From NCBI RefSeq assembly GCF_023256255.1, contig NZ_JAGDXD010000068.1, positions 2,084-48,369 of the forward strand: a stretch of 46,286 nt of DNA, written 5' to 3'. Of this stretch, positions 19,488 through 42,952 are shown piece by piece. The position numbers were made by a program, and so were the translations under genes. Positions within the stretch are counted from its first letter, which is position 1; each line of letters starts with the position of its first letter. The DNA comes from Caldivirga sp. (GTDB taxonomy: Archaea > Thermoproteota > Thermoprotei > Thermoproteales > Thermocladiaceae). The notes beneath the pieces were generated by a model. It was not told where the DNA came from. It did no database searches and was given only the letters and a program-made list of their open reading frames with translations.

Positions 19488-20480
19488 ATGAGTAATCTAA
19501 GGATTGTGGTATATGGCTTAGGCCCCATAGGTCAATTAATAACTAAAGTGGCGTTAGAGAGAGGAATGGAGGTCACTGGGGCAATAGATATTGACCCCAG
19601 TAAGGTTGGTAAGGATATTGGTGAAGTATTGGGTTTAGGTAAGAGTGTGGGTATTAAGGTTGAAAGTGATGCCGATAAGGTATTATCAAGCTCAAGACCC
19701 GATGTTGTACTTCACTCCACTGGCACATGGCTTGATAGGGTTTACCCACAGTTAGTTAAGGCAATTAAAGTCGGCGCCGACGTGGTATCCACATGTGAGA
19801 CGTTGGCATGGCCGTGGTACAGGTATCCTGACTTAGCTGAGTTAATAGATAGTTACGCTAAGAGCCATGACTCAACCGTACTTGGTGCTGGAGTTAATCC
19901 AGGTTTCATCTTCGATGCATTACCAGCAGTATTATCCATAACACTGGTGAGGCTTAATAAGATAAGCATTATTAGGTCACTTAATGCCGCCGAAAGGAGA
20001 CAGTCATTCCAGAGGAAAATTGGCTTAGGAATGACTCCTAGTCAATTTAAGGAAGCGTTAAGTAGAGGGGAAATAACTGCACATGTTGGCTTCGCTGAAT
20101 CCATATTACTTACTGCAAGCATCATTGGTATTAACCTCACTGAGGTTAAGGAGAACCAGGAGGCCATAATAGCTGATAAGCATTATGAAACCCAGTACTT
20201 TAAGATTGAGCCTGGCCAAGTCCGTGGCGTTGATGGTTACGGGGTTGGGTTAGTTAATGGTCATGAAGTCATTAAGGTTGAATTAAGGGCATGTGTCGCC
20301 TGTGAGGATTATGAGGAGGTTAGTCTTGAAGGTGAACCAACCATAACCTGGAGGAGTAGTGGAACACCAGGTGATCCAGCTACCGCTGCCGTTGTTGTTA
20401 ATCTAGCTGATAGGGTCACCGAGGCTAGGCCTGGTTTAATAACTCTTAAAGACTTAATAAAATACTCATACAGTTGGTAA
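19488..20480 (+). CDS. 2,4-diaminopentanoate dehydrogenase-like oxidoreductase
   Basis: The 330-residue protein has an N-terminal Rossmann fold (RIVVYGLGPIGQL, about residues 5-17) and DapB-like architecture. The segment STCETLAWPWYRYPDLAEL and the loop VLGAGVNPGFIFDALP (about residues 128-143) are typical of the 2,4-diaminopentanoate dehydrogenase group. True DapB proteins are shorter. The enzyme probably acts on an amino acid in an NAD(P)-dependent step; the substrate is not certain. A CTTAAATA (19456-19463) is 28 bases before the ATG. Confidence 0.85.
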   Translation: MSNLRIVVYGLGPIGQLITKVALERGMEVTGAIDIDPSKVGKDIGEVLGLGKSVGIKVESDADKVLSSSRPDVVLHSTGTWLDRVYPQLVKAIKVGADVVSTCETLAWPWYRYPDLAELIDSYAKSHDSTVLGAGVNPGFIFDALPAVLSITLVRLNKISIIRSLNAAERRQSFQRKIGLGMTPSQFKEALSRGEITAHVGFAESILLTASIIGINLTEVKENQEAIIADKHYETQYFKIEPGQVRGVDGYGVGLVNGHEVIKVELRACVACEDYEEVSLEGEPTITWRSSGTPGDPATAAVVVNLADRVTEARPGLITLKDLIKYSYSW

Positions 20481-20543
20481 AGTTCCGTTAAATAATAATC
20501 AAGCTTAGGCGCTTAGCCGCTCCTCATGCATTGGATTATGTTA

Positions 20544-42781: not shown

Positions 42782-42868
42782 TAAAACTAGTCCCCTAGTC
42801 ATGGTTTATTCCTCGATCATACCTAGTAATGTAAGGCATATTGGTTCTTACAGGTACTTAACGAAATG

Positions 42869-42876
42869 TTTAAAAG
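42869..42876 (+). promoter_or_regulatory. TATA box of the tRNA-Gly 3' half
   Basis: TTTAAAAG lies 25 to 28 bases before a predicted start near 42897, giving a leader of roughly 20 bases before the tRNA exon. This shows the half gene has its own promoter. Confidence 0.65.
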
Positions 42877-42896
42877 GCCCATAAAGTAATGCCCTT

Positions 42897-42916
42897 GACG
42901 CACCGCCCGCGTGGAA
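42897..42916 (+). other. GC-rich leader of the tRNA 3' half
   Basis: The leader (GACGCACCGCCCGCGTGGA before the exon) is very GC-rich beside AT-rich flanks. In split tRNAs such leaders pair with the trailer of the partner transcript, and the endonuclease removes them at a bulge-helix-bulge junction. Its exact 5' end is inferred from the TATA box. Confidence 0.55.
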
Positions 42917-42952
42917 CGCCGCAGATCCCGGGTTCAAATCCCGGCGGCCGCA
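42917..42952 (+). tRNA. Stand-alone 3' half of tRNA-Gly (split tRNA)
   Basis: The segment contains base 38 (C42917), the 3' anticodon stem GCCGC, variable loop AGATC, a full T arm (CCGGG-TTCAAAT-CCCGG), the acceptor 3' strand CGGCCGC and discriminator A42952. No CCA is encoded. No D arm, anticodon or 5' acceptor precedes it, and no matching 5' half (GCGGCCG start) occurs in this window. The acceptor and the GCGGC/GCCGC anticodon stem match archaeal tRNA-Gly. It begins after the canonical 37/38 junction and a GC-rich leader with its own TATA box, so it looks like a trans-spliced half, known from Caldivirga split and tri-split tRNAs. A T-rich CTTTTCC follows as a likely end. Confidence 0.88.

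What the first reader, a model, noticed from the sequence alone, without database searches (positions are those of the whole stretch)
42869..42952. Stand-alone 3' half of a tRNA-Gly with its own promoter
The sequence holds a complete T arm, 3' anticodon stem and 3' acceptor strand starting at the canonical 37/38 junction, but no 5' tRNA part. A TATA box and a GC-rich leader precede it. This fits a trans-spliced split tRNA. Such split and tri-split tRNA-Gly genes are established for Caldivirga maquilingensis, so the phenomenon is known; which partners this half serves cannot be told here.
Basis: partly seen in the sequence, partly recalled or inferred. Interest (0 to 1): 0.85.

Follow-up and report, generated by a model that had tools for sequence, protein, structure and literature searches.

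The report
Shared 3' half of split tRNA-Gly
This archaeon, a relative of Caldivirga maquilingensis, makes all its glycine tRNAs by joining separately encoded RNA pieces; the gene in the window is the one 3' piece they all share, and all four partner genes were found in the genome, a known system here seen in a further species.

Summary
Confirmed. Window 42869-42952 holds a conserved TATA element, a GC-rich leader and tRNA-Gly positions 38-73, with no 5' tRNA part. All predicted partners exist in the same 2.07 Mb assembly: a 5' half for Gly(CCC), a D-arm piece (positions 1-25), and two middle pieces (26-37) with anticodons GCC and UCC. Trailers and leaders pair into bulge-helix-bulge motifs at 37/38 and 25/26, and the joined products are recognised as tRNA-Gly. 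No intact tRNA-Gly was found. All five pieces recur in three other Caldivirga genomes; promoter, leader and exon of the 3' half are conserved between diverged flanks. This is the tri-split tRNA-Gly system reported for C. maquilingensis (Fujishima 2009; reviewed in PMC4390854), here in a further species: a new member of a known kind. In passing: another genus of the family has a separate bi-split tRNA-Gly(UCC), divergent halves 118 bases apart, and sister species keep an intact gene identical to the predicted spliced product. tRNA-Ala is split here but contiguous in MU80. This points to repeated, recent splitting of tRNA genes. Transcription and splicing were not tested.

The parts
42862..42879 (+). 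Conserved promoter block CGAAATGTTTAAAAGGCC with TATA box TTTAAAAG at 42869-42876; expected start of transcription near 42897-42900
   Evidence: Invariant in four Caldivirga genomes while the sequence upstream has diverged; role as promoter inferred from archaeal BRE/TATA spacing
42897..42916 (+). Leader of the 3' half; removed on splicing. 42900-42910 GCACCGCCCGC pairs with partner trailers, 42911-42914 GTGG is the 3' strand of the central helix, 42915-42916 AA lies before the cut
   Evidence: Complementary to the trailers of the CCC 5' half and the GCC and UCC middle pieces
42917..42952 (+). tRNA-Gly exon, positions 38-73, shared by tRNA-Gly CCC, GCC and UCC
   Evidence: Joined products are called tRNA-Gly gcc, tcc and ccc by ARAGORN; exon identical in G001, G002, G003

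Best explanation
The locus is the single 3'-half gene of a tri-split tRNA-Gly system. It is transcribed alone. Its leader pairs with the trailer of a 5' half (C4:37917 plus, Gly CCC) or of a middle piece (C3 about 20471-20494 minus, GCC; C6:3931-3942 minus, UCC). The middle pieces in turn pair through their leaders with the trailer of a D-arm piece (C27:101725 plus). The archaeal splicing endonuclease is expected to cut the bulge-helix-bulge motifs at 37/38 and 25/26, and a ligase to join the exons, giving all three tRNA-Gly. Shown here: the gene pieces, their complementarity, the products and the conservation. Inferred: transcription, cleavage, ligation and charging.
For: All five pieces in one genome. 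Canonical bulge-helix-bulge at 37/38 between the GCC piece and this leader (11-bp outer helix) and at 25/26 between the D-arm and GCC pieces (14-bp outer helix), read on the sequences. Duplex energies reached by 2, 124 and 13 of 5000 shuffled trailers for GCC, UCC and CCC, and by 0 of 5000 shuffled middle-piece leaders. Products recognised as tRNA-Gly gcc, tcc, ccc. No intact tRNA-Gly among 37 tRNA matches. All five pieces conserved in three more Caldivirga genomes. Same arrangement as described for C. maquilingensis, where cleavage was demonstrated.
Against: No RNA data. The UCC and CCC joints have one mismatch in the central helix and an unpaired insertion in the outer helix; the UCC leader-trailer energy is the least unusual against shuffles (124 of 5000). 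Computed minimum-energy cofolds do not in every case reproduce the full hand-drawn motif. The assembly is a draft (97% complete), so an intact copy in a gap is not excluded.
Confidence: 0.97

Rival explanations
1. A dead 3' fragment of a tRNA gene, such as the attachment-site copy left by an integrated element.
For: Such a fragment seems to exist in this genome: a second 3' end of tRNA-Arg(CCG) about 2 kb from the intact copy on contig C5.
Against: Here no intact tRNA-Gly exists to be the source, the fragment starts exactly at position 38 behind a leader complementary to three partner pieces, and promoter, leader and exon are conserved across four genomes.
Confidence: 0.01
2. An intact or intron-containing tRNA-Gly gene whose 5' part was missed nearby, or a permuted gene.
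For: Vulcanisaeta-like relatives (genus g4) have contiguous tRNA-Gly with a 37/38 intron ending in CGUGGAA, as this leader nearly does.
Against: The exact GCGGCCG D-arm pieces lie on contigs C4 and C27, not in the window; in the single-contig G001 the 5' pieces and the 3' half are hundreds of kb apart.
Confidence: 0.01

Closest known systems
Split and tri-split tRNA-Gly of Caldivirga maquilingensis (Fujishima et al. 2009, as described in PMC4390854 and PMC4033280)
   Same: One constant 3' half used by a split tRNA-Gly(CCC) and by tri-split tRNA-Gly(UCC) and (GCC); [quoted passage not shown] the same number and roles of pieces here.
   Different: A further species; sequences of leaders and trailers differ slightly. 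No difference in design was found. The primary paper was not held, so the comparison rests on reviews and on G001, which may be C. maquilingensis.
Split tRNAs of Nanoarchaeum equitans and of Desulfurococcales (PMC3218864, PMC4390854)
   Same: Separately encoded halves joined through a bulge-helix-bulge motif; in N. equitans one 3' tRNA-Glu half serves two 5' halves.
   Different: Other tRNAs and two pieces only; the Desulfurococcales halves lie close together, and the splits are regarded as independent.

Membership tests
Caldivirga-type tri-split tRNA-Gly | Stand-alone 3' half (positions 38-73) with its own leader | tested here: met
Caldivirga-type tri-split tRNA-Gly | 5' half for Gly(CCC) split at 37/38 | tested here: met
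   C4:37917 plus
Caldivirga-type tri-split tRNA-Gly | Common D-arm piece ending at position 25 and two anticodon pieces (GCC, UCC) | tested here: met
   C27:101725, C3 near 20471, C6:3931
Caldivirga-type tri-split tRNA-Gly | Leaders and trailers form bulge-helix-bulge motifs at both joints | tested here: met
   Read on the sequences; cofold and shuffle tests; relaxed motif for UCC and CCC at 37/38
Caldivirga-type tri-split tRNA-Gly | No intact tRNA-Gly genes | tested here: met
   37 tRNA matches, none tRNA-Gly; the one ARAGORN Gly call is a truncated tRNA-Ser(GGA) at a contig end. Draft genome, 97% complete
Caldivirga-type tri-split tRNA-Gly | Transcription, endonuclease cleavage and joining in trans | not testable with these tools
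   Needs RNA or enzyme assays; the splicing endonuclease genes of this genome were not looked for
Attachment-site fragment of a tRNA gene | An intact source tRNA gene of the same identity and an integrated element | tested here: not met
   No intact tRNA-Gly

The most novel reading that the evidence does not exclude
tRNA-Gly has been split at least twice independently in this archaeal family: once in the ancestor of the Caldivirga species (tri-split) and once, recently, in another genus (bi-split Gly(UCC) with divergent halves) whose sister species keep the intact gene. Together with tRNA-Ala, split in some Caldivirga genomes but contiguous in MU80, this gives before-and-after pairs for how tRNA genes become split.
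Probability: 0.8. Interest if true: 0.6.

Novelty: new member of a known kind. Interest (0 to 1): 0.4.

Why it matters
The window gene shows that the tri-split tRNA-Gly system is not a peculiarity of one strain but is kept across the genus Caldivirga. The comparisons bear on the open question whether split tRNAs are ancient or derived: intact orthologues in sister species, and intron ends that resemble the leader, favour late splitting of ordinary or intron-containing genes.

Tried and rejected
A 5'-half pattern with wrong spacing found only one unrelated site with two mismatches and was replaced by a gapped one. The exact 3' exon also hits Thermofilum, but there as intact tRNA-Gly genes. The 2009 primary paper is not held. 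Searches for papers on split tRNAs with Thermocladium or Vulcanisaeta, or on Caldivirga MU80, found none. Glu(UUC) halves, expected from C. maquilingensis, were not searched for. G004 (67% complete) gave only the UCC middle piece.

Full report
What is there. The window reads TTTAAAAG at 42869-42876, a GC-rich leader GACGCACCGCCCGCGTGGAA at 42897-42916 and then 36 bases (42917-42952) that are tRNA positions 38-73 with an intact 3' anticodon strand, T arm, acceptor strand and A73. No 5' tRNA part is near; the tRNA finders report only other tRNAs in the window. The locus sits between a PALP-family enzyme ORF and an ion-channel/TrkA ORF.

The partners. The window lies in a 2.07 Mb assembly of 71 contigs. 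Scanning it for GCGGCCG D-arm pieces gave two exact hits. At C4:37917 the piece runs through the anticodon CCC to position 37 and continues into a trailer that pairs with the window leader. At C27:101725 it stops at position 25 and runs into AAAGGGGGCUGGGGC. A scan for the complement of the leader gave, besides the window itself, one site with two mismatches, at C3 near 20471. Read on the minus strand it is a middle piece: a leader complementary to the C27 trailer, the exon GGCGGCCUGCCG (positions 26-37, anticodon GCC) and a trailer complementary to the window leader. A second middle piece, with anticodon UCC, is at C6:3931-3942.

The joints. Read by hand on these sequences, the GCC piece and the window leader form a canonical motif: anticodon stem GCGGC/GCCGC, bulge AA^C, central helix CUGC/GUGG, bulge CG^C and an 11-bp outer helix. 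The D-arm and GCC pieces form another: central helix UAGG/CCUA, bulges AU^A and AG^G, and a 14-bp outer helix. The UCC and CCC pieces pair at 37/38 with one mismatch in the central helix and an unpaired insertion in the outer helix. Duplex energies against shuffled partners: 2, 124 and 13 of 5000 shuffles reach the observed value for the GCC, UCC and CCC trailers, and 0 of 5000 for both D-arm joints. The joined products are recognised as tRNA-Gly gcc, tcc and ccc. The computed minimum-energy cofolds do not always reproduce the hand-drawn motif in full.

Is it needed? The genome gives 37 tRNA matches, none a real tRNA-Gly. The one Gly call by ARAGORN, at the end of contig C9, is a truncated tRNA-Ser(GGA), judged by reading the sequence.

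Conservation. The 3' half recurs in G001, G002 and G003 of the same genus, and so do both D-arm pieces and both middle pieces. G002 and G003 match Caldivirga sp. MU80 and UBA161 at this locus. G001 is a single 2.1 Mb contig and may be C. maquilingensis; this was not shown. In the alignment CGAAATGTTTAAAAGGCC is invariant, and leader and exon from CGCACC onward are invariant but for one base, between flanks that hardly align.

What is known. PMC4390854 describes the C. maquilingensis system: Gly(CCC) from two pieces, Gly(UCC) and Gly(GCC) from three, one constant 3' half and four alternative pieces. The present set is the same. The finding is therefore a new member, in a further species, of a known kind.

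Origin. In another genus of the family (g4) contiguous tRNA-Gly genes carry an intron at 37/38 that ends in CGUGGAA, close to the end of this leader. In genus g2, G006 and G007 have a bi-split tRNA-Gly(UCC): the halves are divergent, their exons 118 bases apart, with a trailer and leader that pair over about 16 bases and cofold to a cloverleaf at -84.2 and -83.1 kcal/mol. Sister species G008 and G009 hold an intact gene identical to the predicted product. tRNA-Ala is split in the own genome, and the lone 5' half is also present in G001 and G003, while G002 and G004 have contiguous genes with extra bases in the anticodon-loop region, read as introns. These comparisons favour late, repeated splitting, although no tree was built.

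Noticed in passing
L169 (G006:C146, 5' half 7751-7713 minus, 3' exon from about 7869 plus) and L172 (G007:C52, 5' half 766-804 plus): In another genus (g2) of the family, two species carry a bi-split tRNA-Gly(UCC) with divergent halves 118 bases apart and a trailer/leader helix of about 16 bp; sister species G008 (L176) and G009 (L179) have an intact gene letter-for-letter equal to the predicted spliced product. No paper on it was found in the held library.
   Followed up: yes
G000:C28:126921-126946 minus (5' half); C28:126573 plus and C15:23083 plus (3' halves): Split tRNA-Ala genes in the own genome, with one 5' half and two 3' halves; MU80 (G002) and G004 have contiguous tRNA-Ala genes with introns instead.
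   Followed up: partly
G000:C5, near 34822 minus: A second 3' end of tRNA-Arg(CCG), about 2 kb from the intact gene, without a leader; looks like an attachment-site copy of an integrated element.
   Followed up: no
G000:C4:37917 (L069), position 33 of the tRNA: The Gly(CCC) 5' half has C instead of the nearly universal U at position 33; the same in G001, G002 and G003.
   Followed up: no
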